A stretch of DNA of 46,380 nucleotides from an uncultured Bacteroidales bacterium (lineage in GTDB: Bacteria; Bacteroidota; Bacteroidia; Bacteroidales; Bacteroidaceae): the NCBI GenBank assembly GCA_902799685.1, contig CADCBO010000019.1:1-46380 (forward strand), written 5' to 3'. Positions 511 through 46,250 of the stretch are shown here, piece by piece. A model generated the notes under the pieces. The model was not told the origin of the DNA and made no database searches. It saw only the letters and a list, made by a program, of their open reading frames with translations. Within the stretch, counting starts at the first letter, position 1. Every line of letters begins with the position of its first letter. The translations under genes were made by a program, and so were the position numbers.

Positions 511-656
511 AAACATTTTAAGGGTATCGGTATCGGAAACCATGGCCGCCCGTGGGCTTGTGAACGGGAGGGGCCCGTGCCTAAGAAGATGCTCTGGAAG
601 GTAGGAGTTTACTCATGCCTCGCGTATTTTCAGATACTGATACCCTTAAAATGTTT
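511..656 (+). repeat. Core-conserved palindromic element, copy 1 (type B)
   Basis: The 24-base arms at 511-534 and 633-656 are complementary at 23 positions, with one G-U type difference. Inside are GGAAACCATGG, CGCCCGTG, TGTGAACGGGAGGGGCCC and, near the right arm, TTTCAGATACTGATACC. The same blocks appear in the reverse-oriented copy at 43677-43810 and partly at 33764-33896. It lies 10 bases beyond the stop of the minus-strand esterase and may act as its terminator. Confidence 0.85.
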
Positions 657-666
657 CTTACTATTC

Positions 667-1590
667 TTAGAAGTGGTTGAAAGTGAGCCAGCGGTAGAAG
701 GATTCGCGCCAGGTGCCGCTGGTGTTGCCGGGATCGTCGGGGCCGAAGGGGCCGGTGCCGTCATCGTACAGATGCATCTCGGCATTGGCTCCGGCGCGTT
801 TCCAGTCAAGGTAGAGGGATACTAGGCCGGCTGCTACGTTATGGTGGTCGCCTCGGGTGGCTATGAAGAGTTTTGGAGCGTTCTGCGGTACCTCCACGTC
901 AATGAGGGAGGGACCGTAGATGGTTGCCATGAATGCAGGACGGTGAGACTCATCAGCCCTTACGGTTGCTCCTATTCCAACTCCTCCGCCTGCAGAGAAT
1001 CCTAAGTACCCTATTTTATCCGGATTGATATGCCATTCCGCGGCATGTTCGCGTACTATTTCCATTGCGCGAAGGGCGTCATTTATGGCATTGTCAATGT
1101 TCTTTACACCGCTCTCGGATGTATCGGGATTAGCATTGGACTTGGTTATCTTGGAGAATTCTGTGACTGTGGCGCTGAGTGCCATCTGACGGTTGGAGCC
1201 ACCGCCGGTTGGTCTGCCTGTGCCCATTCCTGAACCGCCTCCCATGGTGCGTGTGCGGTATTTAAGCCCGATTGCCGCTATTCCCCGTTCATTGAGCCAG
1301 CGTGCCATATTAATTACATCCGTACCCCAGGAATGTGACATCAGTCCTCCGCCGGAGCAGAGGATGACTGCAGTGCCAGTGGCTTTGGCAGCATCGGGCA
1401 GATAAACTGTTATGGAGGGTGTAACAACACCGGATATGCTCTGAATATTGCCGTCGGGACCGCGTGATATACGCTCATTGTCCTGTACTCCCTCACTGCC
1501 GGGTGCAACGCCGTCATACAGGCGAATCTCCTGTTGGGCGGATGCTGCTGTGGTGAGAGCAAGGAGCAGAATAGTTATTGCTTTTTTCAT
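667..1590 (-). CDS. Secreted alpha/beta hydrolase, acetyl esterase-like
   Basis: This 307-residue protein begins with a typical cleavable signal peptide (MKKAITILLLALTTAASAQ), so it should act in the periplasm or outside the cell. The fold is recognisable from the CSGGG oxyanion-type motif near residue 80, the GFSAG nucleophile elbow with Ser199, and a GDHHN motif near the C-terminus that may supply the catalytic His. In Bacteroidota such enzymes are usually annotated as acetyl xylan esterases or xylanase-associated esterases that deacetylate plant glycans. The glycine-rich insert at about residues 117-132 is unusual. It is divergent from a second esterase at 1742, which fits a carbohydrate role, but the substrate is inferred. 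Confidence 0.85.
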   Translation of the reverse strand: MKKAITILLLALTTAASAQQEIRLYDGVAPGSEGVQDNERISRGPDGNIQSISGVVTPSITVYLPDAAKATGTAVILCSGGGLMSHSWGTDVINMARWLNERGIAAIGLKYRTRTMGGGSGMGTGRPTGGGSNRQMALSATVTEFSKITKSNANPDTSESGVKNIDNAINDALRAMEIVREHAAEWHINPDKIGYLGFSAGGGVGIGATVRADESHRPAFMATIYGPSLIDVEVPQNAPKLFIATRGDHHNVAAGLVSLYLDWKRAGANAEMHLYDDGTGPFGPDDPGNTSGTWRESFYRWLTFNHF

Positions 1591-1636
1591 TGTGTGGAAA
1601 TATGTTTGCTGTTTTTGATATTTGTGGTTTGTGGCT

Positions 1637-1644
1637 CAAATATA
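1637..1644 (-). promoter_or_regulatory. Candidate -7 box of the minus-strand esterase
   Basis: On the minus strand the bases read TATATTTG, matching the Bacteroidota TAnnTTTG consensus, about 47 bases upstream of the start codon at 1590. Confidence 0.55.
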
Positions 1645-1669
1645 TGTTTTTTTGTGACATGTAGGTACA

Positions 1670-1736
1670 TAATTTGCTTTGTTGAAACAATTTGGAGGTG
1701 ACAAAAGAATAATTATTGTTTAAATGATTATATTTG
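1670..1736 (+). promoter_or_regulatory. Candidate promoter region for the SGNH esterase
   Basis: Two candidate -7 boxes are present: TAATTTG at 1670-1676 (one base short of the consensus) and TATATTTG at 1729-1736 (exact consensus). The second lies only 5 bases before the preferred start codon and would give an almost leaderless transcript, so the first may be the working one. I cannot decide between them. Confidence 0.4.
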
Positions 1737-1741
1737 CCTCT

Positions 1742-2785
1742 ATGAAAAAGCAGTTTTTGAACATCATACTGTCTGTCATTATTATGATGACGGGTCAAGG
1801 TGTGTTTGTCGATAAGGCAAATGCACAGGAACCGGATCCTGATTTTTATGTTTTCCTGGGTATCGGACAGTCCAATATGCAGGGAAAGGCTCCTATAGAG
1901 AACCAGGACAGGAATAGCACAAAGAACTTTACCAATGATGACTGGGCCCGGTATAAGAAGATGATAATTGTGGACAGCAATTCATCAAAGGTAGGTACAT
2001 GGACCACTGCCAAGCCACCCATCGTACGTCCTGATACGCAGTTGGGCGTAACTGACTATTTCGGCCGTTATCTTGTGAAAGGGCTTGACGAGCGTTATAA
2101 GGTAGGTGTGGTTGTGGTTGCCGTGGACGGATGTTCCATTAAGGCGTTCAGCAAGAACAAGACAGTTTGCACCAATTATCTGAATGATTCGGGAACGGGA
2201 TCCTGGGTAAAGGAGGCTGCGGCGCAATACGGAAACTATCCTTACGGAAAGCTTTTGGAGATGGCTAAAAAGGCCCAGGAATCCGGTGTCATAAAGGGTA
2301 TAATATTCCATCAGGGTGAGACCGATGCCTATGATGAGGCCTGGCTGGAGAGTGTGTATCAGCTTTATACCAATTTGCTTGCCGATTTGAGCCTTTCGGC
2401 CGATTCGGTTCCGTTCATAGCAGGTGAACCTGTTCAGCAGAGTGAGGGTGGCGCATGCTATGGAGCCATTCCTTGGGTTGACAAGATTCCTTCATATTTC
2501 AAGCAGAAGTCAGGAAAAGACATTGCTTATGTGGCATCATCCGAAGGGTGTACAAAGATAAGTTCTGATGTATATCATTTCTCGTCGGCCGGATACAGGA
2601 AACTGGGTGGACGGTATGGTGAGATCATGCTTCCGCTGCTTCTGGCACAGGGGGCTGTGCCAAGCGCTGTGATGACGGTAATGGATGACAAACAGGATGT
2701 GATATATGATTTGCTTGGCAGAAGGCTGGATGCTCCACAGAAAGGCATTAACATAATTAACGGCAAGAAAGTTGTAATAAGATAA
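1742..2785 (+). CDS. Secreted SGNH-type carbohydrate esterase (sialate O-acetylesterase-like)
   Basis: The preferred start (ATG 1742) gives 347 residues with a signal peptide to about residue 29; an in-frame ATG at 1724 would add six unlikely residues. The GIGQSNMQG block holds the nucleophile Ser44. FHQGETDA is the block seen in SASA/CE6-type esterases, and DVYHFSSAGYRKLG supplies the Asp-His pair. These enzymes remove acetyl groups from sugars. The C-terminus (VIYDLLGRRL, then INGKKVVIR) resembles the short tails found on secreted Prevotella-like proteins and in type IX sorting domains. This suggests export to the surface, which is inference. The substrate cannot be read from the sequence. 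Confidence 0.85.
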   Translation: MKKQFLNIILSVIIMMTGQGVFVDKANAQEPDPDFYVFLGIGQSNMQGKAPIENQDRNSTKNFTNDDWARYKKMIIVDSNSSKVGTWTTAKPPIVRPDTQLGVTDYFGRYLVKGLDERYKVGVVVVAVDGCSIKAFSKNKTVCTNYLNDSGTGSWVKEAAAQYGNYPYGKLLEMAKKAQESGVIKGIIFHQGETDAYDEAWLESVYQLYTNLLADLSLSADSVPFIAGEPVQQSEGGACYGAIPWVDKIPSYFKQKSGKDIAYVASSEGCTKISSDVYHFSSAGYRKLGGRYGEIMLPLLLAQGAVPSAVMTVMDDKQDVIYDLLGRRLDAPQKGINIINGKKVVIR

Positions 2786-2829
2786 GTACAGGTTGCTTTC
2801 TTACGGATACAATTTAAAAACAGATACTT

Positions 2830-5046
2830 ATGAGTGATTACGAATGGAAATTCTCTACCATTGGTGGAAAGAACCGCGTGAATATCCAAAGCGGTGAGGA
2901 TATCAGGCATCTGGGTGAACTGGATCAGAAGTTATGGACAGTATTGAGCAGTCCTGTCACGGGACTGGAGTTCGATGAAAAGACTCTCAAGATGCTGGAC
3001 AGCAATAATGACGGTCGTATCCATGTGAATGAGGTAGTGGAGGCTGCCCAGTGGATTACATCTATCATAAATGATCCGGACCTGTTGCTCAAGAAGGAGG
3101 ATGTGCTTCCTTTCTCTGCTTTCAATACTGAGAATCCTGACGGAGCCAGATTGCTGGCATCGGCCAAGCAGATCCTTTCCAACCTTGGACTGGAGAAGGA
3201 CAGCATATCGGTAGCCGATACAGATGACAGTGTGGCTATATTTGCCAAGACTGCATTGAACGGTGACGGGATCATAACCGAGCAGTCAACCGATGACGAG
3301 GCACTTAAGAAAACCATTGCAGAATGTATTGCTTCAATGGGCTCAAAGACTGACCGCAGCGGATTGCAGGGCATAGACACGGATCTTATAGAGGCATTCT
3401 ATGGAGCTCTGTCTGCATATGCGGCCTGGAAAAAGACAGCCGAAGATGATAAGGATGCTATTTTCCCATATGGCGATGGAACAGCTGATGCTTATGACAC
3501 AGTCAATTCCATCAAGGCAAAGGTGGCTGACTACTTTATGCGCTGCAAACTGGCTGCATTCAGCGCTGCCAGTGCATCGGCATTGGATGTATCGGTGAGC
3601 CGTATTGAGGCTATCAGTGATCAGGACCTGTCTGCCTGCGAAGATAAGATCTCGCAGTATCCGCTTGCAAGCATTACACCCAACAACGCACTTCCTATTG
3701 ACGAGAGGGTCAATCCCGTTTGGCAGGCTACCTTTGCCAAGCTCAAGGCTGTCGTGTTTGACAAGGACTTCAAGGGAGCCAAGGAGATTACTGAGGCCCA
3801 GTGGAATGATGTGCTTGCCAAATTCGGTGCATATGAAGGTTGGATGGGTGCCAAGGCAGGAGTTGAGGTTGAGGCCCTTGGACTGGATGAGGTAAAGGCT
3901 CTGCTCAAGGCTGACCGTAAGGCCGACCTGCTAAAACTGGTAGAAGATGACAAGGCCCTGGAGTCTGAGTCACTCTCAATTGATGAAGTTAACAAACTGA
4001 CACATCTGTATAGAGATTTCTATACATTCCTTTGCAACTATGTTTCATTCAAGGACTTCTATAACCCTGAAGAGAAAGCTGTGTTCCAGGCAGGCCAGCT
4101 CTATATTGATGAGCGTTGCTGTGACCTCTGTATCAAGGTGTCTGATATGGGACCTCATAATGCAACGGCCGGCTTGAGTGGAATGTATATACTTTACTGC
4201 AACTGTGTGGACAAGGTTACCGGTGCAACAATGATCATCGCGGCTGTGATAACCGATGGCGATATATCCGCTTTGCGCGAGGGCAAGCACGGACTGTTCT
4301 ATGACCGCACAGGTAACGAGTGGGATGCGACGGTATTCAAGATTATTGACAATCCCATAAGCATACGTCAGGCATTCTGGTCACCTTATCGCAAGCTTGG
4401 AAGGTTCATTGAGAAGACCATTGAGAAGAACGCTGCCGATAAGGATGATAAGGTAACTGCCGATATGACGGCCAAGGTTCCAACGTCAGGTGAGGGTGCA
4501 GAGAAGAAACAGGTGTTTGACATTGCCAAATTTGCCGGAATATTTGCTGCATTAGGTTTAGCATTGGCTGCTATAGGTGGGGCTTTGGCTGTTGTTGCCA
4601 AGAGCCTTTCAGGTTTTGTCTGGTGGCAGTGGCTGGTGCTGATTGCCGTAATTATGCTTGTCATCTCAGGACCGGCCATGATTCTGGCTTGGCTCAAGTT
4701 GCGCAAGCGCAGTCTGTCGCCTCTGCTCAATGCCAATGGCTGGGCAATCAACGCTGCAGCTAAGGTGAACATCACATTCGGTGCAACCTTAACTGAAATC
4801 AGTAAGACTCCTGTTAAAGCAGAACCAGACCCGTTTGCCGACAAGACTCCGTTCTGGAAGAAGCTTCTTGGCTGGCTCATTGTGCTTGGTATCATCTTCT
4901 GGATATGCTATTCCAACAACTGGATAGAGAAATGGACTGATAATTCCAAGTGGCATTACGAAAAGAAAGATAAGCCCAAGGAGGAAACTCCAGCTGAGAA
5001 TGCAGAGTCCATGCTGATTCTCACAGTAAAAGACTTCCGCGCTTAA
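2830..5046 (+). CDS. Large membrane protein with an EF-hand, function unknown
   Basis: This 738-residue protein has no signal peptide. Near the N-terminus is a canonical calcium-binding EF-hand loop from Asp57 to Glu68 (Asp57, Asn59, Asp61, Gly62, Ile64, Glu68). A weaker second loop (NGDGIIT) lies near residue 140. A long helical, acidic region follows, then a beta-rich part (about 410-510). Two closely spaced membrane helices at about 567-622 and a third at about 680-700 end in a Lys/Glu-rich tail. I do not recognise a family with a known role. The large soluble part before the helices, with no export signal, suggests that it faces the cytoplasm. The gene stands alone between the esterase and the terminator at 5072. 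Confidence 0.8.
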   Translation: MSDYEWKFSTIGGKNRVNIQSGEDIRHLGELDQKLWTVLSSPVTGLEFDEKTLKMLDSNNDGRIHVNEVVEAAQWITSIINDPDLLLKKEDVLPFSAFNTENPDGARLLASAKQILSNLGLEKDSISVADTDDSVAIFAKTALNGDGIITEQSTDDEALKKTIAECIASMGSKTDRSGLQGIDTDLIEAFYGALSAYAAWKKTAEDDKDAIFPYGDGTADAYDTVNSIKAKVADYFMRCKLAAFSAASASALDVSVSRIEAISDQDLSACEDKISQYPLASITPNNALPIDERVNPVWQATFAKLKAVVFDKDFKGAKEITEAQWNDVLAKFGAYEGWMGAKAGVEVEALGLDEVKALLKADRKADLLKLVEDDKALESESLSIDEVNKLTHLYRDFYTFLCNYVSFKDFYNPEEKAVFQAGQLYIDERCCDLCIKVSDMGPHNATAGLSGMYILYCNCVDKVTGATMIIAAVITDGDISALREGKHGLFYDRTGNEWDATVFKIIDNPISIRQAFWSPYRKLGRFIEKTIEKNAADKDDKVTADMTAKVPTSGEGAEKKQVFDIAKFAGIFAALGLALAAIGGALAVVAKSLSGFVWWQWLVLIAVIMLVISGPAMILAWLKLRKRSLSPLLNANGWAINAAAKVNITFGATLTEISKTPVKAEPDPFADKTPFWKKLLGWLIVLGIIFWICYSNNWIEKWTDNSKWHYEKKDKPKEETPAENAESMLILTVKDFRA

Positions 5047-5071
5047 CACAGGTTCAAACGTATTTCCGCAA

Positions 5072-5106
5072 AAAAAAGTCGGGGTCCCAAATAGGGGCCC
5101 CGATTT
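5072..5106. terminator. Bidirectional intrinsic terminator
   Basis: TCGGGGTCCC pairs with GGGGCCCCGA across AAATA, with one G-U pair. A run of A on the left and T on the right lets it end both the plus-strand membrane protein gene and the minus-strand tRNA gene. Confidence 0.85.
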
Positions 5107-5108
5107 TG

Positions 5109-5180
5109 TTGCGGAGGATGGATTCGAACCACCGACCTTTAGGTTATGAGCCTAACGAGCTACCTCTGCTCCACTCCGCG
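5109..5180 (-). tRNA. Initiator tRNA-fMet (anticodon CAU)
   Basis: A complete cloverleaf of 72 bases can be drawn: acceptor CGCGGAG/CTCCGCA, D arm GAGC/GCTC, anticodon loop CTCATAA, T arm GGTGG/CCATC with loop TTCGAAT. Two features identify it as the initiator rather than elongator tRNA-Met: the unpaired C1:A72 at the acceptor end and the A11:U24 pair in the D stem. The anticodon stem is TTAGG/CCTAA, so only two of the usual three consecutive G:C pairs are present, the pair at 29:41 being A:U. CCA is not encoded. A strong promoter lies upstream and the shared terminator downstream. Confidence 0.95.
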
Positions 5181-5198
5181 ATATCTGTTTTGCGAGTG

Positions 5199-5230
5199 CA
5201 AAGATAGTCCTTTTGTGTCTTATAAGCAAA
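5199..5230 (-). promoter_or_regulatory. Promoter of the initiator tRNA gene
   Basis: On the minus strand TTTG (-33, complement of 5227-5230) and TATCTTTG (-7, complement of 5199-5206) are separated by 20 bases, a close match to the Bacteroidota housekeeping promoter, 18 bases before the tRNA. Confidence 0.8.
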
Positions 5231-5268
5231 TCTTTTACTGTAAATATGATTTTGATACACATTTTTAG

Positions 5269-5276
5269 TACTTTTG
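5269..5276 (+). promoter_or_regulatory. -7 box of the TetR-fabG operon
   Basis: TACTTTTG matches TAnnTTTG and lies 19 bases before the ATG at 5296. Confidence 0.6.
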
Positions 5277-5295
5277 TAACCCCAAATGGAAGGCT

Positions 5296-5901
5296 ATGGA
5301 AAATCCCAAGACAAGACTTCAGTTCATCAATGCCGCCAAGACCCTGTTTGTAAAGAAAGGCTATGACGAGACTACTATGATAGACATAGCTCAGGAGGCA
5401 GGGTTAAGCCGCAGGACCTTGTATGCATATTTTGAAAGCAAGGTAGAGGTGTTTCAGGCCGTGATAAACAGCGAGGTGGATAAGATTCTTGTACAACTTA
5501 CAGACATAGCCGAGCAAAACATACCCCCTCAGCAGAAAATTGTGGAGTTTGTGTTCGGATATTTCCGCCTGGTAAAGGAGACGGTTGACAGGAACGGAAC
5601 ATTGAGGTCCGGTTTCTTCCGTAACATCTGGGGATTGGAACATTTCCGTAAGGGTTTTGACGTAAAACAGAAACAGCTTCTTCAGGATATTATCACCGAG
5701 GGAAAGACATCGGGGGCATTTGATGTGGTCAGCGTGAGGCGAACCGCGGAGATCATGCACAACTGTATGCGCGGATTTGAGGCCCCGTACATCAGGGGTA
5801 AACTCTGGCAGGGTAATACCCGTGAGGAGATACGTTTTGAGGCTCGCCGTCTTATATACGGAGCCTTGGGATGCAGCAGTCAGGAATCTAATAAACAATA
5901 A
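5296..5901 (+). CDS. TetR/AcrR-family transcriptional regulator
   Basis: The 201-residue length is typical of the family. The N-terminal helix-turn-helix is clear: residues 8-24 form the first helix and about 27-47 (TMIDIAQEAGLSRRTLYAYF) the recognition part. The C-terminal part is an all-helical ligand domain with no obvious clue to its effector. It is followed after 8 bases by fabG and then by a pseudouridine synthase. The arrangement suggests that it controls this small operon or fatty-acid related genes, which is inference. The start is fixed by a promoter box 20 bases upstream. Confidence 0.9.
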   Translation: MENPKTRLQFINAAKTLFVKKGYDETTMIDIAQEAGLSRRTLYAYFESKVEVFQAVINSEVDKILVQLTDIAEQNIPPQQKIVEFVFGYFRLVKETVDRNGTLRSGFFRNIWGLEHFRKGFDVKQKQLLQDIITEGKTSGAFDVVSVRRTAEIMHNCMRGFEAPYIRGKLWQGNTREEIRFEARRLIYGALGCSSQESNKQ

Positions 5902-5909
5902 TCATAATA

Positions 5910-6659
5910 ATGGGAAAACTGGAAGGAAAGACGGTGCTCATAACCGGAGCAACCCGTGGAATAGGTCTGGCTATGGCCAAACTGTTTGCCGCCGAGGGCG
6001 CAGACCTGGCATTCGTGTATATTAACAGCGTGGAGAAGGCTCAGGCTCTGGAGAAGGAACTCAGTGAGAATGGTATCAAGGCCAAGGGTTACCGCGTGGA
6101 TGTATCCAGCTACGAGGGTGCCGCACAGATGGTGGAAGAGGTGGTCAAGGAATTCGGAAGGATAGATATTCTGGTAAACAACGCAGGCATAACGCGTGAC
6201 GGACTTCTGATGCGCATGAACGAGCAGCAGTGGGATGAGGTGATTGACACCAACCTGAAATCGGCTTTCAACTTCATAAAGGCATGTACTCCGCAGATGA
6301 TGCGTCAGCGTAGCGGTTCAATACTGTGTGTTTCATCTGTTGTGGGACTTCACGGTAATGCCGGACAGACCAACTATTCAGCTTCAAAGGCAGGCTTGAT
6401 AGGATTGACCAAGTCTGTTGCCAAGGAGATGGCATCCCGTGGAATCCGTGCCAATGTGATTGCACCGGGTTTTGTGCTGACAGAGATGACTACCGGCAAG
6501 ATTCCCGAAGACAAACTGGCGGAATGGTGCAAGTCAATTCCTCTGCAGCGCGGAGCTCAGGTTGAGGAGATTGCACGGGCCGCCCTGTTCCTGGTATCCG
6601 ATGACAGTTCATACGTGACGGGGCAGGTGCTTCAGGTTGACGGAGGAATGAGCATGTGA
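5910..6659 (+). CDS. fabG: 3-oxoacyl-[acyl-carrier-protein] reductase FabG
   Basis: This 249-residue classical short-chain dehydrogenase matches FabG in length and motifs: the TGATRGIG nucleotide-binding loop (12-19), NNAG (90-93), the Asn114-Ser143-Tyr156-Lys160 catalytic set (YSASK) and the C-terminal GQVLQVDGGMSM that closes the active site in FabG. It would reduce 3-oxoacyl-ACP with NADPH in fatty-acid elongation in the cytoplasm. It lies 8 bases after the TetR gene, and its stop overlaps the start of the next gene. A related ketoacyl reductase of another pathway cannot be ruled out, but the sequence looks like housekeeping FabG. Confidence 0.92.
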   Translation: MGKLEGKTVLITGATRGIGLAMAKLFAAEGADLAFVYINSVEKAQALEKELSENGIKAKGYRVDVSSYEGAAQMVEEVVKEFGRIDILVNNAGITRDGLLMRMNEQQWDEVIDTNLKSAFNFIKACTPQMMRQRSGSILCVSSVVGLHGNAGQTNYSASKAGLIGLTKSVAKEMASRGIRANVIAPGFVLTEMTTGKIPEDKLAEWCKSIPLQRGAQVEEIARAALFLVSDDSSYVTGQVLQVDGGMSM

Positions 6660-7342
6660 TGCAGGTTCTTTACGAGGATAACCATATTATAATTGTCTCC
6701 AAGAGGGCAGGCGAGATTGTGCAGGGAGACAAGACCGGCGATATTCCTTTGTCGGAGACTGTTGCTGCATACCTTAAGGAAAAATACTCCAAACCCGGTA
6801 ATGTGTTTGTCGGTGTGCCTCATCGTCTGGACCGTCCTGTGAGCGGGGTGGTGGTGCTGGCCAGGACAAGCAAGGCGCTGGCACGCCTGAATGAGATGTT
6901 CAGGGTAGGCAGTGTTGACAAACGCTATCTGGCTATCGTAAAGAACAGGCCTCTGGAACCTGAGGGCAGACTTGAGAACTGGCTTGTGCGTAATGAAAAG
7001 CAGAACCGCTCATATGCATATGACAAGGAGGTGCCTAACAGCAAAAAGGCTGTCCTGAACTATAGGCTGGTGGCAAGTTCGGTCAATTACCACCTGATCG
7101 AGGTGGAACTTCTTACCGGACGGCATCATCAGATACGATGCCAGTTGGCCAAAATGGGCTGTCCCATCAAGGGTGACCTTAAATATGGCGCTGAACGGTC
7201 AAATCCTGACGGAAGCATATCCCTGCATGCATTCCATGTAACCTTTGAACATCCCGTATCACATCAGATGATAGACATAAAGGCACCTCTGCCAGAAGAT
7301 CCGCTATGGCAGAGTTTTGTGGAGGCAGCTAATAATCTTTAA
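6659..7342 (+). CDS. RluA-family RNA pseudouridine synthase
   Basis: The 227-residue protein has the family signature HRLDRPVSG with the catalytic Asp58, followed by the RLLTGRxHQIR-type block (VELLTGRHHQIRCQL) late in the domain. It would convert specific uridines of rRNA or tRNA to pseudouridine. There is no S4 domain, so it is a compact member of the RluA group; the target base cannot be told. ATG 6659 shares one base with the fabG stop (TGATG). A GTG at 6656 is also in frame. Its stop is one base from the stop of the convergent cyclophilin gene, and no terminator is visible between them. Confidence 0.9.
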   Translation: MQVLYEDNHIIIVSKRAGEIVQGDKTGDIPLSETVAAYLKEKYSKPGNVFVGVPHRLDRPVSGVVVLARTSKALARLNEMFRVGSVDKRYLAIVKNRPLEPEGRLENWLVRNEKQNRSYAYDKEVPNSKKAVLNYRLVASSVNYHLIEVELLTGRHHQIRCQLAKMGCPIKGDLKYGAERSNPDGSISLHAFHVTFEHPVSHQMIDIKAPLPEDPLWQSFVEAANNL

Positions 7343-7343
7343 G

Positions 7344-8231: not shown

Positions 8232-8253
8232 AGTTACATATTTTTATTGACTG

Positions 8254-20772: not shown

Positions 20773-20846
20773 AAGAGACAATTGGGGACTGTCCCTTTTT
20801 GTCACGCTTCAGATGTGCAAAAGGGGACTGTCCCCAATTGTCTCTT
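20773..20846. repeat. Palindrome with GGGGACTGTCCC arms (type A), overlapping mazG
   Basis: The 29-base arms at 20773-20801 and 20818-20846 are complementary at 27 positions around a 16-base loop. They contain GACAATTGGGGACTGTCCC. The hairpin with flanking T runs could end transcription from both sides. The right arm lies inside the mazG coding sequence and encodes its last residues. The GGGGACTGTCCC core resembles REP-like repeats mobilised by Y1 transposases elsewhere; no such transposase is in the window. Confidence 0.85.
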
Positions 20847-23275: not shown

Positions 23276-23341
23276 GTTTACTATGCCGTAAAAACAGCCC
23301 CATGCTCTACATATTTTTCATTTCCTGCCTACGGATTCTTT

Positions 23342-23425
23342 ATTTTACGACGTGAAATATACATTTTACGTCGAGAAATATACATTTTACGTCGTAAAAT
23401 GTACGTTTTACGTCGTGAAATAAAG
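23342..23425. repeat. Four tandem 21-bp repeats with palindromic TTTACGTCGTAAA core
   Basis: Units of 21 bases start at 23342, 23363, 23384 and 23405. Each contains TTTTACGNCG followed by an A-rich end; the third unit has the perfect palindrome ATTTTACGTCGTAAAAT. The array stands 70 bases before the -7 box of the regulator at 23538 and is the main content of the 316-base gap 23222-23537. It looks like an iterated protein-binding site. CRISPR is excluded because there are no spacers. Confidence 0.85.
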
Positions 23426-23494
23426 TTTTCCTGCCTGTCCGGACTGATTGCTACAGCGCTACAGTAATAAACTTGCAGTTTCTTTTCCGGGCCA

Positions 23495-33763: not shown

Positions 33764-33896
33764 AAAACTTGAAGGATATAGTATCCAAAACCGTCGCCAC
33801 CCTCGGCGCGTCAGAGGGAGGGGCCCAAAATCTTGATTTTGGGAGGGATAGGCCCTGAAAGGGCCGTAGTTTTGGATACTATATCCTTCAAGTTTT
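33764..33896 (+). repeat. Core-conserved palindromic element, copy 2 (type B)
   Basis: Perfect 28-bp inverted arms lie at 33764-33791 and 33869-33896. The interior holds GAGGGAGGGGCCC, a nested hairpin CCCAAAATC/GATTTTGGG (33824-33843), GGGAGGGATAGG and a small GGCCCT/AGGGCC hairpin, ending in CCGTAGTTTT. These blocks match the copy at 43677-43810. The outer arm sequence (CTTGAAGGATATAG) is unlike that of the other copies, yet pairs perfectly within this copy. The right arm ends 21 bases before the valS -7 box. Confidence 0.88.
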
Positions 33897-39679: not shown

Positions 39680-39698
39680 TTTGTTCGGGATGATGGCG

Positions 39699-40068: not shown

Positions 40069-40113
40069 CATCCGCATTTTTGCAAACGCTATTTATTTAA
40101 TAATTAAAAACAA

Positions 40114-40431
40114 ATGAATCAGTACGAAACCGTTTTCATTTTGACTCCCGTTTTATCTGATGTTCAGATGAAGGAAGCGGTAGAGAAATTCAAGGGCATT
40201 GAAGAGAACTGGGGCATGCGTAAGCTGGCCTATCCCATTGAGAAGAAGTCAACCGGCTTCTATGAGTTTATCGAATTCAATGCTGAGCCTACAGTCGTAG
40301 AGAAGCTGGAGGTTAACTTCCGTCGTGACGAGCGCGTCATCCGTTTCCTGACCATCAAGCAGGACAAGTACGCAGCTGAATACGCAGCAAAGAGAAGAAG
40401 TCTTAGACAGTCTAAACAAGAGGAGGCATAA
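40114..40431 (+). CDS. rpsF: Small ribosomal subunit protein bS6
   Basis: The 105-residue protein begins [16 protein letters not shown], the typical bS6 start, and contains [18 protein letters not shown] and the [11 protein letters not shown] strand. bS6 binds 16S rRNA together with bS18, whose gene follows after 2 bases, and rplI completes the usual operon. Confidence 0.97.
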
Positions 40432-40433
40432 TT

Positions 40434-40703
40434 ATGGCAGAGCAGACATCAGAGATCAGATATCTTGCACCTCAGACTCAGGATATCAAGAAGAAGAAAT
40501 ATTGCCGTTTCAAGAAGGCAGGTATCAAGTATATCGATTATAAGGATCCCGAATTCCTTAAGCGTTTCCTTAACGAGCAGGGTAAGCTTCTGCCCCGTCG
40601 CATCACCGGTACTTCACTCAAGTTCCAGCGTCGCGTGGCTCAGGCTGTTAAGAGAGCACGTCACCTGGCTCTTCTGCCTTACGTAACCGATATGATGAAG
40701 TAA
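40434..40703 (+). CDS. rpsR: Small ribosomal subunit protein bS18
   Basis: This 89-residue basic protein has the bS18 core: [37 protein letters not shown] and [14 protein letters not shown]. It forms the platform heterodimer with bS6 in the 30S subunit. Its start lies 2 bases after the rpsF stop, so translation is probably coupled. The motif CxF keeps a single Cys. Confidence 0.97.
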
Positions 40704-40727
40704 TAATCTTTAAAGAACAGAAAGACT

Positions 40728-41177
40728 ATGGAGATTATACTGAAAGAAGATATTGCAGGTCTTGGATACAAGAACGATATAGTAAAGGTAAAGGACGGCT
40801 ATGGCCGTAACTATCTGATTCCCCAGGGCAAGGCTGTCATCGCTACAGAGTCAGCCAAGAAGGTTCTGGCAGAGAACGAGCGTCAGCGTGCTCATAAGCT
40901 GGCTAAGATCAAGGCCGATGCTGAGGCACAGGCTGCTAAGCTGAACGGTGTTAAGGTTACCATCAGCGCTAAGGTTAATGAGGACGGTACAATCTTTGGT
41001 GGCGTAGGCGCAGCTCAGGTTGCTGAGGCTCTGGCCGCTAAGGGCTTTGAGATTGACCGCAAGGCAATCGTTGCCGAGACTGTCAAGGCCGTTGGTGAAT
41101 ATACCGCTACCATCAATCTCCACAAGGAGGTTAAGGCAGAGGTTGCCTTCGAGGTAGTTGCCGAGGCTGCAGAATAA
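40728..41177 (+). CDS. rplI: Large ribosomal subunit protein bL9
   Basis: The 149-residue protein starts MEIILKEDIAGLGYKNDIVKVKDGYGRNYLIP (given in full only as a description: GLGYK and GYGRNYLIP are the diagnostic blocks). A long connecting helix and the C-terminal domain with GxIFGGVGAAQVAEAL follow. It binds 23S rRNA at the base of the L1 stalk. It is the last gene of the S6 operon and is followed by a strong terminator. Confidence 0.97.
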   Translation: MEIILKEDIAGLGYKNDIVKVKDGYGRNYLIPQGKAVIATESAKKVLAENERQRAHKLAKIKADAEAQAAKLNGVKVTISAKVNEDGTIFGGVGAAQVAEALAAKGFEIDRKAIVAETVKAVGEYTATINLHKEVKAEVAFEVVAEAAE

Positions 41178-41201
41178 CAGAATTCTGTAACACACAGATA
41201 A

Positions 41202-41239
41202 GAAGAGGATGTTCTTTTTTAGGACATCCTCTTTTTTTG
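41202..41239 (+). terminator. Terminator of the rpsF operon
   Basis: AAGAGGATGT pairs with ACATCCTCTT, followed by a T run. Confidence 0.92.
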
Positions 41240-41240
41240 C

Positions 41241-41248
41241 TAATTTCG
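41241..41248 (+). promoter_or_regulatory. Candidate -7 box of mtaB
   Basis: TAATTTCG differs by one base from TAnnTTTG. It directly follows the rpsF operon terminator and is 10 bases before ATG 41259. Confidence 0.4.
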
Positions 41249-41258
41249 CAACAGATAT

Positions 41259-42581
41259 ATGGGTAACGCGGAATTTACTTTGGAGGGCCGTAGCGCCTCG
41301 TTCTACACTCTGGGATGCAAACTCAACTTCTCGGAGACATCGACCATCATGCGCCAGCTGATTGAGGCCGGTGCGCATAAGGCCGTGCGTGGCGAGAAGG
41401 CCGATATCTGCGTGATCAATACCTGCTCGGTAACCGAGGTGGCCGACAAGAAATGCCGCCAGGCCATCCACAAGATTGTTCGTGAGAACCCTGATGCCTA
41501 CATAGTGGTTACCGGCTGCTACGGACAGTTACAGCCCGGAGTTGTGGCCGATATCCCCGGTGTGGACATAGTGCTTGGACAGGATCAGAAGGGCAATATC
41601 CTGGAGAACCTGAACGGACTGCAAAAGCGTGATCATGGTATATCCAGGACCGTGGGTACTAATGATATAAAGAACTTTGTACCGTCATGTTCACGCGGTG
41701 ACCGCACCAGGTTCTTCCTAAAGGTGCAGGACGGCTGTGACTACTATTGTACATACTGCACCGTTGCATACGCCCGCGGACACAGCCGCAACCCGTCTAT
41801 CGGAAGTCTTGTGGAGCAGGCCCGTCAGGCTGCCGCAGAGGGTGGTCGCGAGATTGTCATTACAGGTGTCAACATAGGTGATTTCGGCAAGAGTACAGGT
41901 GACAGTTTCATAGACCTGATACGTGAGCTGGACAGGGTGGAGGAGATTGCACGGTACAGGATTTCGTCCATTGAGCCTAATCTGCTTACTGATGAGGTGA
42001 TTGACTTTGTGGCGCAGTCGCGTGCTTTCATGCCGCATTTCCATATTCCGCTGCAGAGCGGATCCAATCAGGTGCTTAAGCTTATGCACCGCCGTTATGA
42101 GCGTGAACTGTTTGCCGGGAAGGTGGCCCGTATCAAGAGCGTCATGCCCGATGCGTTCATCGGCGTTGATGTGATAGTGGGTATGCGTGGTGAGACCGAT
42201 GAACTCTTTGAGGATGCATACCAATTTGTTGAGGGCCTGGATGTTACGCAGTTGCATGTGTTCAGTTACTCTGAGCGTCCGGGTACGGCTGCGCTCAGGA
42301 TTCCGTACAAGGTGTCGCCTCAGGTCAAACATGAGCGCAGCCAGAGGCTGCTGGAACTGTCGGACCGCAAGACCCGTGCGTTTTATGAGGCTCACATAGG
42401 TAGTGAAGCAACTGTTCTGGTGGAGCGTCCTCGTCGCGGAATGCCTGCCCACGGGTTTACAGACAATTATATTAGGGTGGAGATGGATTCGGCACAGGTA
42501 CAGGAGAACAGTCTGGTTCGTGTTCGTCTGGGTGGACTGAATGCTGCAGGCGATGCTCTGACCGCCACATTATTGGAATAG
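41259..42581 (+). CDS. mtaB: tRNA t6A37 methylthiotransferase MtaB
   Basis: The 440-residue protein is a MiaB-like radical SAM enzyme. The N-terminal domain carries Cys20 (YTLGCKLN), Cys56 (NTCSVT) and Cys87 (VTGCYGQ) for the auxiliary 4Fe-4S cluster. The radical SAM cluster is bound by Cys160, Cys164 and Cys167 (CDYYCTYC), and a C-terminal TRAM-like domain follows. TLGCKLNFSET and EVADKKCRQAI are typical of the MtaB rather than the MiaB or RimO branch. It would convert t6A at position 37 of tRNAs to ms2t6A. A glycosyltransferase gene begins one base after its stop. Confidence 0.93.
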   Translation: MGNAEFTLEGRSASFYTLGCKLNFSETSTIMRQLIEAGAHKAVRGEKADICVINTCSVTEVADKKCRQAIHKIVRENPDAYIVVTGCYGQLQPGVVADIPGVDIVLGQDQKGNILENLNGLQKRDHGISRTVGTNDIKNFVPSCSRGDRTRFFLKVQDGCDYYCTYCTVAYARGHSRNPSIGSLVEQARQAAAEGGREIVITGVNIGDFGKSTGDSFIDLIRELDRVEEIARYRISSIEPNLLTDEVIDFVAQSRAFMPHFHIPLQSGSNQVLKLMHRRYERELFAGKVARIKSVMPDAFIGVDVIVGMRGETDELFEDAYQFVEGLDVTQLHVFSYSERPGTAALRIPYKVSPQVKHERSQRLLELSDRKTRAFYEAHIGSEATVLVERPRRGMPAHGFTDNYIRVEMDSAQVQENSLVRVRLGGLNAAGDALTATLLE

Positions 42582-42582
42582 T

Positions 42583-43605
42583 ATGAAGATTGCGATAGTG
42601 ATATTGAACTGGAACGGCAGCGGGATGCTTAAGCGTTATATGCCTACGCTGCTCAGGTGCTCACGCATGGAGGGCGTTCAGGTGATTGTAGCCGACAATG
42701 ACTCCAAGGATGATTCCATGGAAATGATGCAGCGAGAGTTTCCTGAGGTACCGCTTATCCGACTGGAAAAGAACTGGGGGTTTGCCAAGGGTTACAATAT
42801 GGCTCTGCGTCAGGTTGAGGCTGAATATTATATACTGCTCAACTCCGATGTCGAGGTATCCGAAGACTGGCTTGTGCCGCTTGTAAGCTACATGGATGTC
42901 CACCCTGAAGTTGCAGCCTGCCAGCCTAAACTGCGTGATTTCAAGGATCCGGAAAGGTTTGAGTATGCCGGCGGTGCCGGCGGATATATGGACCGCTGGG
43001 GTTATCTGTTCTGCCGCGGCCGCGCATTCGAGACCGTAGAGAATGATAACGGACAGTATGATACCATAGCTCAGGTGTTCTGGGCAACAGGAGCCTGCCT
43101 TATGGTTCGCAGTGCCGATTTTTGGGCCGCAGGCGGACTGGATGACCGTTTCTTTGCACATCAGGAGGAGATAGACCTGTGCTGGCGTATGCGCAGCCGC
43201 AACCGCGGTATTGTGTGCATACCGGAGAGTGTGGTCTATCACGTGGGTGGCGCTACACTCAACAAATCAAATCCGTACAAGACATTCCTCAATTTCCGCA
43301 ACAACCTGCTCATGCTCTACAAGAACCTGCCGGAGAGTGAGTTAAGTAAGGTAATGCGCGTACGTTTCTGGCTGGATGTTCTGGCTGCACTCATGTTCCT
43401 CATGAAGTTCCACTGGGGGGATTTTAAGGCCGTGCTGCGTGCCCGCCGTGAGTTCCGCCGCCTCAAGCCCCAGTTCGCTGACAGCCGTGAGGAAAATCTT
43501 CAAGAGGCTTCCATCACAGAGATCCCCGAGCGCGTAAAGTTCAGCCTTTTGTGGCGTTACTACGCAAAACGCCGGAAAACCTACAATCAGTTAATGGTAG
43601 AATAG
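42583..43605 (+). CDS. Family 2 glycosyltransferase (rhamnosyltransferase-like)
   Basis: The 340-residue protein has the GT-A fold blocks of family 2: IVILNWNGSGML, VADNDSKDDS, LEKNWGFAKGYN, the LLNSDVE metal motif, ATGACLMVR and FFAHQEEIDLCWR. A C-terminal hydrophobic segment (FWLDVLAALMFLMKFHW) suggests membrane association. It would transfer a sugar from a nucleotide or lipid carrier in polysaccharide or LPS synthesis. It is not part of a larger glycan cluster here but is translationally close to mtaB. Confidence 0.92.
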   Translation: MKIAIVILNWNGSGMLKRYMPTLLRCSRMEGVQVIVADNDSKDDSMEMMQREFPEVPLIRLEKNWGFAKGYNMALRQVEAEYYILLNSDVEVSEDWLVPLVSYMDVHPEVAACQPKLRDFKDPERFEYAGGAGGYMDRWGYLFCRGRAFETVENDNGQYDTIAQVFWATGACLMVRSADFWAAGGLDDRFFAHQEEIDLCWRMRSRNRGIVCIPESVVYHVGGATLNKSNPYKTFLNFRNNLLMLYKNLPESELSKVMRVRFWLDVLAALMFLMKFHWGDFKAVLRARREFRRLKPQFADSREENLQEASITEIPERVKFSLLWRYYAKRRKTYNQLMVE

Positions 43606-43610
43606 GGGCA

Positions 43611-43860
43611 CTAAGGGGACGGTTCTTGGACAAGCCAAGCGGCAAAGCCGAGCGCTTTCTGTGCCCTTTTTCCAAGAGAACTTTTGGGGTATCAGTATCT
43701 GAAACTACGGGCCTAAAGGCCCTATCCCTCCCACGCCTACGGCGCGGGCCCCTCCCGTTCACAGCGACACGGGCGTCGATGGTTTCCGATACCGATACAC
43801 CAAAAGTTCTGTGCACCTGGGAGGGTTATCAAAAGGGCACAGAAAGGACCGTTCCTTTTT
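43611..43860 (-). repeat. Nested palindromic element, copy 3 (type B inside type A-like arms)
   Basis: Inner arms at 43677-43705 and 43782-43810 match at 26 of 29 positions. On the minus strand the interior reads GGAAACCATCG, CGCCCGTG, TGTGAACGGGAGGGGCCC, GGGAGGGATAGGGCC and GTAGTTTCAGATACTG, the same order as copies 1 and 2. Outside is a second pair, CTTTCTGTGCCCTTTT (43655-43670) with its exact complement at 43831-43846, and outermost GGGGACGGTTC and GACCGTTCC. Short reading frames on both strands in this stretch come from the repeat. Confidence 0.85.
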
Positions 43861-43879
43861 TGTTGGGATTTTTCTAATT

Positions 43880-45325
43880 TTAATGGCGGGTTAGGGTGAG
43901 GGTGTGGTCGATGGTGGAGGGGAGTTCTTCGGGGTAGTGGGTTACGATTATGAGGGTCTTTTGCGGATTGGCGCAGAAGGCTTTTATTATTTCCATCACC
44001 AGGGTGCGGTTGCGTCGGTCCAGTCCGTGAAGGGGTTCGTCAAGGATGAGTAGGGAGGGGTTCTTTACGAATGCGCGGGCCAGAAGGATCATGCGCTGCT
44101 CTCCGCTGGAGAGTTCCGTGAAATCTCTTTCCTCCAGTTTCTCTATGCCGAAAATGCTCATCCATACACGGCATTTCTCACGTTCTTCGATGGTGATTTT
44201 TTTATACAAACCGATGGTGTCATGAAGGCCCGATGCCACAATGTCAATGGCCGGATAGCGGCGGCAGTATGAGCGGTGCATCTCGGGTGATACGTAGCCT
44301 ATGTGCTTCTTGATTTCCCAGATGCTTTCGCCCGTTCCGCGGGGGCGGCCAAAGAGGGCAATGTCGCAAGCGTAAGATTGCGGGTTGTCGGCATAGACCA
44401 TACTCAGCAGGGCTGATTTGCCGCTTCCGTTGGGGCCCAGGAGTGCCCAATGTTCACCTTTGCGGATGGTCCAGTCAAGAGGCCCCAGTATGCGGCGGTT
44501 CTCATATTGCAGGCTTACCTGATTGCAACGGACAATCTCATCGGACTGCATTCCGTTCTCGGGGAGGTTGTGCATCAGTTCTACAGTTTCTTTTGGCAGC
44601 AGAGGCTGGGGGAGTGGGTCAAGCGGCTGTTCCAGATACTCCTCAACGGGCATTACATCAGTACAACAGCGGTCTTTAACCTCTATTATATGATTAATGA
44701 ACTGCGGGATATCCTCACGGCGTGAAACTACCAGCACAATCTGTATCTTCCATTCACTGATAAGGTTCTCAAGCAGGCGACACAGCATATCGCGTGTCTG
44801 TATGTCCAGACCTATGAACGGACTGTCTATTATCACCATCTTGGGGCGTACGGCAAGGGCTCGGGCCAGCTGGTATTTGCGCATCTCGCCGCTGGATAGT
44901 GTTACAAGCTGCTTATCCCATATGGAAGGCAGACCGAACAGCGTATGCAGGCGCTCTTTCCACACCGGATCCTTTACATCGGGGAATGCGTCACGCACAA
45001 TGGCCGATTCGCCCATCTCAGTCATGTTCCAGCGCTGCTGGTAGAAGTAGGTGGCATCGGCACTGCCGTAGCTGTCACGGAAAGTTATGTTGCGGATATC
45101 TGCCCCGCTCATGCCACAACCGTATTCCACCTCACGGTTGTCCAGAAGCGGATATTGGCGCAACATGGTATTAACGAGCAGAGTCTTGCCCGCACCATTA
45201 GGGCCCACAATGGCTGTCTGCCGGCCCGGAGCCAGGCATACGTTGATGGGGGAAGCCAGACGGTACTTGGGGTTGCAAGCCACGCCATCCGATATTCTGA
45301 GCACGAATCCGCTGTTCTGTTCCAT
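43880..45325 (-). CDS. Double ABC ATPase, ModF/PhrA-like
   Basis: The 481-residue soluble protein carries two ABC domains, the layout and length of E. coli ModF (PhrA). Domain 1 has Walker A GPNGAGKTL and signature LSSGEMRKYQLARA, but its Walker B reads VIIDSPFIGLD, with Ser where the catalytic Glu should be. Domain 2 is canonical: GPNGSGKSA, LSSGEQRMILLARA and LILDEPLHGLD. No membrane partner is adjacent, so a transport role is doubtful. The promoter overlaps that of the divergent methyltransferase gene. Confidence 0.85.
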   Translation of the reverse strand: MEQNSGFVLRISDGVACNPKYRLASPINVCLAPGRQTAIVGPNGAGKTLLVNTMLRQYPLLDNREVEYGCGMSGADIRNITFRDSYGSADATYFYQQRWNMTEMGESAIVRDAFPDVKDPVWKERLHTLFGLPSIWDKQLVTLSSGEMRKYQLARALAVRPKMVIIDSPFIGLDIQTRDMLCRLLENLISEWKIQIVLVVSRREDIPQFINHIIEVKDRCCTDVMPVEEYLEQPLDPLPQPLLPKETVELMHNLPENGMQSDEIVRCNQVSLQYENRRILGPLDWTIRKGEHWALLGPNGSGKSALLSMVYADNPQSYACDIALFGRPRGTGESIWEIKKHIGYVSPEMHRSYCRRYPAIDIVASGLHDTIGLYKKITIEEREKCRVWMSIFGIEKLEERDFTELSSGEQRMILLARAFVKNPSLLILDEPLHGLDRRNRTLVMEIIKAFCANPQKTLIIVTHYPEELPSTIDHTLTLTRH

Positions 45326-45343
45326 TTTTGCCTAATGACGGTG

Positions 45344-45372
45344 CTAAGTTAATGCAAAATGCGCTACCTTAG
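45344..45372. promoter_or_regulatory. Closely spaced divergent promoter boxes
   Basis: On the minus strand TAACTTAG (complement of 45344-45351) and on the plus strand TACCTTAG (45365-45372) both match TAnnTTTG except for A in the third position of TTTG. They lie 13 bases apart, so the two genes probably compete for polymerase. The plus-strand box is 4 bases before ATG 45377, giving a very short leader. Confidence 0.45.
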
Positions 45373-45376
45373 CATC

Positions 45377-46081
45377 ATGATTCCCGCTTTATATTTGATT
45401 CCGAACCTATTGGGAGAGACTCCGGTGGAGCAGGTGCTTCCCGCATACAACCACGAAATTATCATGGGCATACGCCATTTCATAGTGGAGGATGTCCGCA
45501 CCGCCCGCCGTTTCCTGAAGCAAGTAGATCGCAGCATCGACATAGACCAACTCACATTCTACACCTTGAACAAACATACCAACCCCGAAGAGGTGGCAAG
45601 CATGCTGAAACCCCTGGAGGAGGGCAATCCTATGGGAGTGATATCCGAGGCCGGATGCCCCGCTGTGGCCGATCCCGGAGCCGATGTAGTAGCCATAGTG
45701 CAGCGCAAAGGCCTGCAGGTAATTCCCCTGGTAGGTCCCTCAAGCATAATCCTGGCAGTAATGGGCTCCGGATTCAACGGCCAAAGTTTTGCCTTCAACG
45801 GCTACCTGCCCATAGAGCCCGATGAAAGAATCAAAACCCTAAAACGCCTTGAGCAGCGAGCCTACACCGAGAATCAGACCCAACTCTTCATAGAAACCCC
45901 ATACCGCAACGCCAAAATGATGTCCGACATCCTAAAAGCCTGCCGTCCCCAAACCCATCTGTGCATCGCCGCCGGTCTCACGACCAAAGACGAATACATC
46001 AAAACCCACACGATTAAGGAGTGGAACGGCAAACTTCCTACACTTGAAAAGATACCCTGTATTTTTCTTATTTACAAGTAA
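45377..46081 (+). CDS. SAM-dependent methyltransferase, RsmI-like (tetrapyrrole methylase family)
   Basis: ATG 45377 gives 234 residues; ATG 45359 would overlap the promoter box. The family blocks are visible: ALYLIPNLLGE at the start, VISEAGCPAVADPGADVV (the GxPxxxDPG motif) and VIPLVGPSSIILAVMGSGF, then QLFIETPYRN. In RsmI the enzyme methylates the ribose of C1402 in 16S rRNA. This protein is about 50 residues shorter than E. coli RsmI and lacks its C-terminal extension, so it may be the short Bacteroidota paralogue with a different target. Confidence 0.85.
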   Translation: MIPALYLIPNLLGETPVEQVLPAYNHEIIMGIRHFIVEDVRTARRFLKQVDRSIDIDQLTFYTLNKHTNPEEVASMLKPLEEGNPMGVISEAGCPAVADPGADVVAIVQRKGLQVIPLVGPSSIILAVMGSGFNGQSFAFNGYLPIEPDERIKTLKRLEQRAYTENQTQLFIETPYRNAKMMSDILKACRPQTHLCIAAGLTTKDEYIKTHTIKEWNGKLPTLEKIPCIFLIYK

Positions 46082-46108
46082 TTATTAAAGGTCTCCTTAG
46101 GCGATAAT

Positions 46109-46250
46109 CCTCCTAGGTGCACAGAATTTTTGGTATATCGGTATCAGCAAATGTCTCCATTTGCAGTAGCCGGACTATCCCTCTCGGGGAGCGTCAGTGT
46201 AGTGGCGTAAGCGTAGGCCCCCGGAAGATCCCGTTAAGAACGGCGCATGT
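46109..46250 (+). repeat. Probable palindromic element, copy 4 (type B, diverged)
   Basis: CTAGGTGCACAGAATTTTTG and the following TATCGGTATC (to 46145) align with the reverse complement of the right flank and arm of copy 3, with three or four differences over 30 bases. The interior then has a 7-bp hairpin GCAAATG/CATTTGC (46147-46164), GGACTATCCCTC, GCGTAGGCCCCC and ATCCCGTT. These resemble the copy 3 core read in the opposite direction to the arm. No matching right arm is seen before the window ends. Confidence 0.55.

What the first reader, a model, noticed from the sequence alone, without database searches (positions are those of the whole stretch)
511..46250. Family of intergenic palindromes with conserved core and self-complementary but variable arms
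Copies at 511-656, 33764-33896 and 43677-43810 (and probably 46109-46250) share interior blocks in the same order: AACC.TCG, GGGAGGGGCCC, GGGAGGGATAGG(G)CC and GTAGTTT. Not every block is kept in each copy. The outer arms differ (AAACATTTTAAGG, AAAACTTGAAGG and AGAACTTTTGG) yet in each copy the left and right arms still pair over 24-29 bases. A simple transposable repeat would keep its ends and lose its middle; here the middle is kept and the ends change together. This points to selection for an RNA or DNA stem-loop, or to a copying mechanism that takes arm sequence from the target.
Basis: partly seen in the sequence, partly recalled or inferred. Interest (0 to 1): 0.78.

Follow-up and report, generated by a model that had tools for sequence, protein, structure and literature searches.

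The report
Knotted intergenic repeats with free arms
A rumen bacterium carries dozens of scattered DNA repeats that fold into a knotted, RNA-like shape: the centre is fixed while the long arms can have almost any sequence as long as they pair, and they match no family in the RNA catalogue searched.

Summary
Three of the four copies hold. They belong to a family with 34 matches in this genome and 288 in 32 of 37 genomes of its genus; it recurs patchily in five sampled genomes from four other families of the order. The ~85-nt core is an H-type pseudoknot plus hairpins P3 and (optional) P4, closed by a long helix, the "arms". Covariation supports arms, hairpins and both pseudoknot stems. At two orthologous sites 14-15 of 28 arm positions changed in pairs; sites without the element lack the arms, so arms are not copied from the target. 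A P3 pair that is G·U or A-U but never G-C (60 sequences), and more G·U than A·C in the arms, point to the forward strand as the folding strand. A 5' leader precedes the arms; copies lie mostly at gene 3' ends; most close pairs are head-to-head, as in REP repeats, but Y1 transposases do not track them. The fourth copy (46109-46285) is another structured family, "core-2", cut by an IS110-family element. Rfam has no match. Most likely a REP/ERIC-like dispersed repeat whose transcript folds as a 3'-end RNA structure; mover unknown.

The parts
496..509 (+). 5' leader of copy A (GGATTCTGGGTGCA)
   Evidence: sequence; leader statistics
511..656 (+). Copy A: arms 511-539 / 628-656; core-1 540-627 with extended P3 tip, lacking the second GGGAGGG block, the 3' side of P3 and part of P4
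   Evidence: 53.9 bits
33750..33762 (+). 5' leader of copy B (TCTCTAAGCGAGC)
33764..33896 (+). Copy B: arms 33764-33791 / 33869-33896 (100% complementary), complete core-1; between an 899-aa ORF (ends 33735) and a valyl-tRNA synthetase gene (starts 33956)
   Evidence: (108.7 bits)
43677..43810 (-). Copy C: arms 43677-43705 / 43782-43810, complete core-1 on the minus strand; between convergent genes (glycosyltransferase, ABC ATPase)
   Evidence: (113.6 bits)
43811..43830 (-). 5' leader of copy C (GATAACCCTCCCAGGTGCAC on the minus strand)
46107..46145 (+). Leader plus left outer arm of the core-1 kind at the fourth place
   Evidence: read from the sequence
46146..46285 (+). Left part of a core-2 element, a different structured family (match 46119-46262)
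46286..46380 (+). Probable noncoding 5' end of an IS110-family insertion sequence inserted in core-2; runs off the contig; start inferred by comparison
   Evidence: transposase of the assembled relative in L367: PF02371 and PF01548

Best explanation
A dispersed, non-coding repeat family whose unit of selection is a single-strand fold of its forward strand, most likely the RNA made by read-through from the gene in front. A short unpaired leader (about TTYCYARGYGMRCA) is followed by helix P1 (the arms). P1 closes a junction that holds an H-type pseudoknot (S1 about 4 bp, S2 5 bp, the 3' strand of S1 directly after the 5' strand of S2), the linker AGGGG, hairpin P3 (CCC...GGG with a conserved R-U pair), the linker AGGGAUA, an optional hairpin P4, and GUA. 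P1 only has to pair, so its sequence drifts by paired changes while the core is kept in sequence too. Sitting just behind stop codons it probably acts as a stable 3'-UTR structure (a barrier to 3'-5' exonucleases, or a processing site), and it spreads as a REP/REPIN-like passenger of an unidentified enzyme. Shown: family, fold, covariation, strand asymmetry, leader, 3'-end location, retention at orthologous sites, patchy spread. Inferred: that the molecule is RNA, the effect on mRNA, and the mover.
For: Covariation with shuffled and slid controls in three alignments: own genome, 96.2% of cells paired vs 77.2% shuffled; divergent genus and g21 copies, 90.8 vs 64.8%; five genomes of other families, 93.5 vs 70.5%; covariation score 0.474-0.579 vs 0.143-0.171 shuffled, slid versions at most 0.095. 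Pseudoknot stem S1: 110 of 151 copies perfectly complementary in eight pair combinations, 29 more if shifted by one nt, 12 not; 98.6, 90.4 and 98.8% paired in the three alignments. P3 pair G-U 45, A-U 15, G-C 0 of 60 sequences. Arms: isolated G-U 51 vs A-C 17 distinct contexts. Same-site series: 96.4% and 95.7% paired, 15 and 14 of 28 positions changed on both sides, five genomes each; S1 changes GGCC/GGCC to AGCC/GGCT between two orthologous copies that share a P2 insert. Leader in 59 of 100 distinct windows vs 4 and 7 in controls. Location: 122 of 151 copies classified, 44 convergent, 70 co-directional (45 sense, 25 antisense), 8 divergent. No Rfam match.
Against: No transcript data. 33 of 122 copies do not follow a gene on their own strand, so read-through cannot make the forward RNA there. 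The G-U/A-C excess weakens when related copies are thinned: 44:16 (p 0.0004, 60 representatives), 22:10 (p 0.05, 37), 15:7 (p 0.13, 27), 10:5 (p 0.30, 16). The fixed R-U pair could be fixed primary sequence. At the site of L008 the inner arms are more alike (median 93%) than the core (85%), against the rule that arms are the free part. Head-to-head pairs and the 5' leader also fit a single-stranded DNA element. Arms and P3 change in whole blocks between close orthologs, which hints at recombination or template switching besides selection. The leader motif also occurs in 16 of 100 3' windows on the same strand, above the controls.
Confidence: 0.52

Rival explanations
1. A single-stranded DNA mobile element in the REP/REPIN manner: the folded forward DNA strand is recognised by an HUH-type or other transposase, the leader is its cleavage or guide motif, and selection acts on the DNA fold through proliferation only.
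For: One-sided 5' leader; copies within 400 nt of each other are (-,+) in nine cases, five of them in one genome, (+,+) in one, and weakly (+,-) in one; near-identical arms at several sites of one genome; patchy spread. G-T is also better tolerated than A-C in DNA (general knowledge).
Against: Y1 transposase genes (PF01797) do not track copy number: Spearman -0.02 over 37 genomes of uneven completeness; 7 of 21 genomes with 5 or more copies show none, 4 genomes with the gene have no copy; of 31 Y1 loci examined (of 42 listed) 1 holds a weak match. Retention at one site with paired changes. The 0-1-nt loops of the pseudoknot suit RNA helices better (general knowledge).
Confidence: 0.3
2. No selection on the fold: arms and hairpins stay complementary because DNA replication corrects imperfect palindromes by template switching, and the core is kept alike by gene conversion among copies.
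For: Block-wise paired changes in P1 and P3 between close orthologs; the same P3 variants recur at different sites.
Against: Template correction would remove G-U and A-C mismatches alike, yet G-U exceeds A-C (weaker after thinning); it does not explain covariation of crossing (pseudoknot) stems or the R-U pair that is never G-C.
Confidence: 0.1
3. Ordinary two-way intrinsic transcription terminators.
For: Stable hairpins at gene 3' ends, 44 of 122 between convergent genes.
Against: A T-run follows the right arm in 6 of 121 copies and an A-run precedes the left arm in 8 of 121; a conserved pseudoknotted core is not needed by a terminator.
Confidence: 0.04
4. One reading: a copying mechanism that takes the arm sequence from the target.
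For: Many arm types (106 of 128 distinct).
Against: Arms absent at the sites without the element that were looked at; arms inside the leader; arms differ between species at one and the same site.
Confidence: 0.02

Closest known systems
REP / REPIN (BIME) repeats with RAYT (TnpA_REP) transposases
   Same: Dispersed palindromes, unpaired tag at the 5' foot, inverted doublets, extragenic; REPs are also known IS110/IS1111 targets (here core-2 is)
   Different: 130-190 nt instead of 20-40; tag is not GTAG or CGTC; a pseudoknotted conserved core; free arms; no correlation with Y1 transposases
ERIC / IRU / RU-1 (127 bp, enterobacteria)
   Same: Length, palindromic, intergenic, co-transcribed with neighbours (PMC2229807, passages)
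   Different: ERIC is recognised by its sequence (recalled); here the ends vary and pairing is kept; pseudoknot. No sequence comparison was made
BOX elements (Streptococcus pneumoniae)
   Same: Modular stem with variable inner part, over-represented between convergent genes (PMC3049150, passages)
   Different: Outer modules boxA and boxC are conserved there; here the outer stem is the variable part
Correia/NEMIS and other bacterial MITEs
   Same: Short, multi-copy, folded when transcribed
   Different: MITEs keep their terminal inverted repeats; here these are the least conserved part in most copies
IS110/IS1111-family insertion sequences (bridge/seekRNA)
   Same: Sit inside core-2 copies, as ISPa11 sits in Pseudomonas REPs (PMC11187229, passages)
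   Different: An occupant of core-2, not the origin of core-1

Membership tests
REP (GTAG/CGTC super-families) | 20-40 nt stem-loop with an unpaired GTAG or CGTC at one end | tested here: not met
   130-190 nt; the 5' tag is [AGT]YGMRC; definition from PMC3733652 passages
REP / REPIN with RAYT | Associated Y1 transposase gene in the genome or flanked by the repeats | tested here: not met
   rho -0.02 over 37 genomes; 1 weak match in 31 of 42 Y1 loci
REPIN | Inverted doublets | tested here: inconclusive
   nine (-,+), one (+,+), one weak (+,-) close pairs, but most copies are single
MITE | Conserved terminal inverted repeats shared with an autonomous transposon | tested here: not met
   106 distinct left arms of 128; translations between five neighbouring copy pairs read as ordinary host genes, no transposase seen, not searched against families
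MITE | Target-site duplication | not tested
   no clean recent insertion with an alignable empty site was found
ERIC / BOX | Sequence homology to the named repeat | not tested
   no sequence comparison made
Any Rfam 15 family | Match at or above the gathering score | tested here: not met
   core-1; window and 7 loci; core-2; 6 loci
Intrinsic terminator | GC-rich hairpin followed by a T-run | tested here: not met
   6 of 121
Structured RNA | Covariation beyond shuffled and slid controls, incl. crossing helices | tested here: met
   no tree-aware test was run
Structured RNA | Transcribed in vivo | not testable with these tools
   no RNA-seq held

The most novel reading that the evidence does not exclude
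A new class of mobile folded RNA: a patchily spread Bacteroidales element that carries no gene and has no fixed ends, whose inherited identity is a pseudoknotted junction, and whose fold (not its end sequences) is what both the host and the moving machinery recognise.
Probability: 0.22. Interest if true: 0.82.

Novelty: new variant of a known kind. Interest (0 to 1): 0.62.

Why it matters
Bacterial repeats are usually recognised by their ends. Here the ends are mostly free and the fold is conserved, so sequence-based repeat finders see a fragment, and mobile-element models that need fixed ends do not fit. Hundreds of naturally varied copies make a ready data set for testing whether small bacterial repeats are selected as RNA or as single-stranded DNA. 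Core-2 shows that the same genomes carry at least one more such family.

Tried and rejected
Rfam at gathering score on the window, and at relaxed E-values on 7 core-1 and 6 core-2 loci: nothing credible. RAYT as mover: genes exist and the two own ones are flanked by other palindromes, but they do not track core-1. A gene carried between neighbouring copies: translations of five intervals read as ordinary host genes, not searched against families. Viral contigs: exact pattern, none; phage records, one copy as query: none. Plasmid records: three, all Azospirillum, over 34 nt; with a second query at E up to 1, 555 records matched, mostly Escherichia at 99% or more, of which I saw only the best 15 rows, all Azospirillum; the others were not looked at. 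The Azospirillum block (AGGGAGGGGCCC-hairpin-GTGGGAGGG) scores 40-43 bits with model R2, but the arms do not pair as in the model and the region before it folds as a plain hairpin, so it is not counted. Terminators: rejected on T-runs. Invertible-promoter and attC readings were considered from memory and not tested. G-quadruplex potential of the two GGGAGGG blocks was considered; some other-family copies break the tracts, so it was not pursued.

Literature: in the listings (open PMC library, 7-20 titles shown each) no title or abstract start described this family; I read passages only of PMC6006769, PMC3733652, PMC2229807, PMC3049150, PMC11187229 and PMC8040213. The candidate lists in the supplements of PMC8040213 could not be opened, so an earlier listing there is not excluded.

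Limits: distinct contexts are not independent events; thinning weakens them. 23 of 151 copies had a gapless arm under 18 nt and were left out of arm counts; 29 of 151 lacked flanks or ORFs and were left out of the gene-context count. One search stopped with an error after two complete series; only those two are counted, and L399, listed for the first, was not in the copy set. The core-2 fold was scored on the alignment it came from, with slid controls only.

Full report
WHAT IS THERE. The window is contig C19 of a 2.81-Mb, 37-contig genome. GenBank titles of 45 stretches with one exact core type are Bacteroidales, Bacteroidaceae or Prevotellaceae metagenome bins, most of those with a stated source from ruminants. 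The three main copies are confirmed. A DNA search with one copy gave 67 matching pieces in the own genome. Trimmed and oriented, 18 copies align into one core: AAACC-[pseudoknot]-AGGGG-[P3]-AGGGATA-[P4]-GTA-GTTT, between arms of many sequences. Of 151 distinct copies collected, 141 hold GGGAGGGGCCC and 126 hold GGGAGGGAT.

THE FOLD. Energy folding gives a four-way junction; the two window copies folded are 6-11 s.d. better than shuffles on either strand. The alignment shows that the strand before the P2 hairpin also pairs with its loop: an H-type pseudoknot (S1 CGCC/GGCG, S2 CCCTC/GAGGG in the commonest type). S1 occurs as CGCC/GGCG (69), CGAC/GTCG (27), GGCC/GGCC (5), AGCC/GGCT (3), AGAC/GTCT (3), AACC/GGTT, TGCC/GGCA and CTGC/GCAG (1 each), 110 of 151; 29 are GGCC/GGGC, which pairs with a shift of one; 12 do not fit or were not parsed. 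S2 occurs as CCCTC/GAGGG, CCCGT/ACGGG and CCCAT/ATGGG, and in single divergent copies as CCCGC/GCGGG and CCCAC/GTGGG. Counted with shuffled and slid controls, the structure including S1 is supported in 18 own-genome copies, 21 divergent copies of the genus and a second genus and 21 copies of five genomes from four other families: 0 of 500 shuffles reach any measure. Alignments A7 and A8 were fitted to a model without S1, so the fitting does not favour S1; it does favour the other helices.

STRANDEDNESS. In P3 the fourth pair is G·U in 17, 14 and 14 and A-U in 1, 7 and 7 sequences, never G-C. On the opposite strand the common state would be a C·A mismatch. In the arms, isolated non-Watson-Crick pairs are G·U in 51 and A·C in 17 distinct contexts (p 4e-5; all mismatches, 135 and 69); thinning related copies keeps a ratio of 2 to 2.75 but loses significance with fewer representatives. 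I take the forward strand to be the one that folds. RNA and single-stranded DNA both allow this.

ARMS. 128 of 151 copies have a gapless arm of 18 nt or more; 106 left arms are distinct; of 755 distinct left-arm differences between similar copies 521 are compensated and 158 one-sided. At the sites of L040 and L042 (five genomes each) the flanks align, yet 15 and 14 of 28 arm positions changed on both sides with 96.4 and 95.7% of cells paired. At the site of L027, G000 differs from G025 and G034 at paired positions. At the site of L008 twelve genomes keep the element; there the inner arms are the conserved part (median identity 93%, core 85%, flanking stretches 82-86%, near noncoding flank 79%) while P2, P3 and P4 vary in pairs. 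Sites without the core: in G012 and G020 16-18 nt remain between the mapped flank points and no arm; G019 has none at another site; G004 and G036 keep leader-like remnants and look like deletions. The arms are therefore part of the element.

LEADER AND DOUBLETS. A 5' motif, consensus about TTYCYARGYGMRCA, stands just outside the left arm in 59 of 100 distinct windows (controls 4 and 7; shuffles mean 7.6, max 15); at the 3' side it occurs in 16 on the same strand and 7 on the other. Copies within 400 nt of each other are head-to-head in nine cases (five in genome G578), tandem in one, and once weakly tail-to-tail.

CONTEXT. 122 of 151 copies had usable flanks: 44 convergent, 45 co-directional in sense, 25 in antisense, 8 divergent; gene 3' ends commonly lie 24-90 nt from the core. 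On 41 thinned copies the numbers are 11, 20, 8 and 2. Gene calls are longest-ORF guesses.

DISTRIBUTION. Genus: 32 of 37 genomes, 288 matches at E 1e-4 or better. Family sample: 31 of 399 genomes, 2 of 30 genera. Order sample: 6 of 393 genomes; the five foreign ones are in families f9 (two), f29, f74 and f108, with 1-10 matches each. Phylum sample: 1 of 395, the own genome. Searches over 40 genomes use stricter filters and candidates are capped, so counts are lower bounds. P4 is missing in three of the four G527 copies aligned and in the G430 and G766 copies.

CORE-2 AND IS110. The fourth place and about two dozen other places in the genome hold another core of ~220 nt, in at least four cases inside arms of the core-1 kind; a query from it matches 24 of 37 genus genomes. 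Its consensus fold, computed from 54 copies, has 93.8% of cells paired and 31 of 42 pairs with two-sided changes, against 42-52% and 14-20 pairs when slid. At one orthologous site G025 has core-2 where G032 has core-1 inside similar arms. Several core-2 copies at contig ends, and one assembled copy, are cut by an IS110-family element, as known for REPs and attC sites (PMC11187229, passages).

MOVER. Y1 transposase genes occur in 23 of 37 genomes but do not correlate with copy number. The two own genes lie beside other palindromes, of GGGGACGGTTC and GGGGTCAGGCCCC types. No enzyme is identified.

INTERPRETATION. A real family with a selected, strand-asymmetric fold: shown. Acting as 3'-UTR RNA and moving by an unknown enzyme: inferred. 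Papers on BOX and ERIC discuss such 3'-end effects for other repeats (PMC3049150 and PMC2229807, passages). Novelty rests on Rfam and on listings of an open-access library.

Noticed in passing
window 46146-46285; L034, L036, L033, L053-L077: A second structured palindrome family (core-2, ~220 nt, GGATCCCGTTAAGAACGGCG block) with covarying stems and a similar leader, sometimes nested in core-1 arms or replacing core-1.
   Followed up: partly
window 46286-46380; L367:1369-2442; contig ends C10, C18, C35, C36: IS110-family insertion sequence sitting in core-2 copies; its near-identical copies seem to break the assembly at several contig ends.
   Followed up: partly
L031, L032; window 293-388 and 20773-20846; flanks of 43677-43810: Two Y1 (RAYT-like) transposase genes beside other palindromes (GGGGACGGTTC; GGGGTCAGGCCCC) whose outer stems also seem to vary while the centre stays; several core-1 copies are nested between such repeats.
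   Followed up: partly
L007, L011, L012, L014, L022, L025, L029, L043, L046: P3 tip extended by a nested palindrome in many copies; P2 loop insert in L123 and L132.
   Followed up: no
L276 and L301 (same site in G012 and G028); L192 and L034: Element or core in opposite orientation at the same orthologous site in different species.
   Followed up: no
L435, L436 (Azospirillum plasmids): A 34-nt block 94% identical to the core, with the same G-U wobble in its hairpin, in an alphaproteobacterium; no pseudoknot or matching arms. Homology or convergence unresolved.
   Followed up: partly
L045:300-413: A strongly diverged copy with altered junction that may lie inside a coding region (not tested).
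   Followed up: no
window 23338-23430: Another long imperfect palindrome with TTTTACGTCG units, unlike core-1.
   Followed up: no
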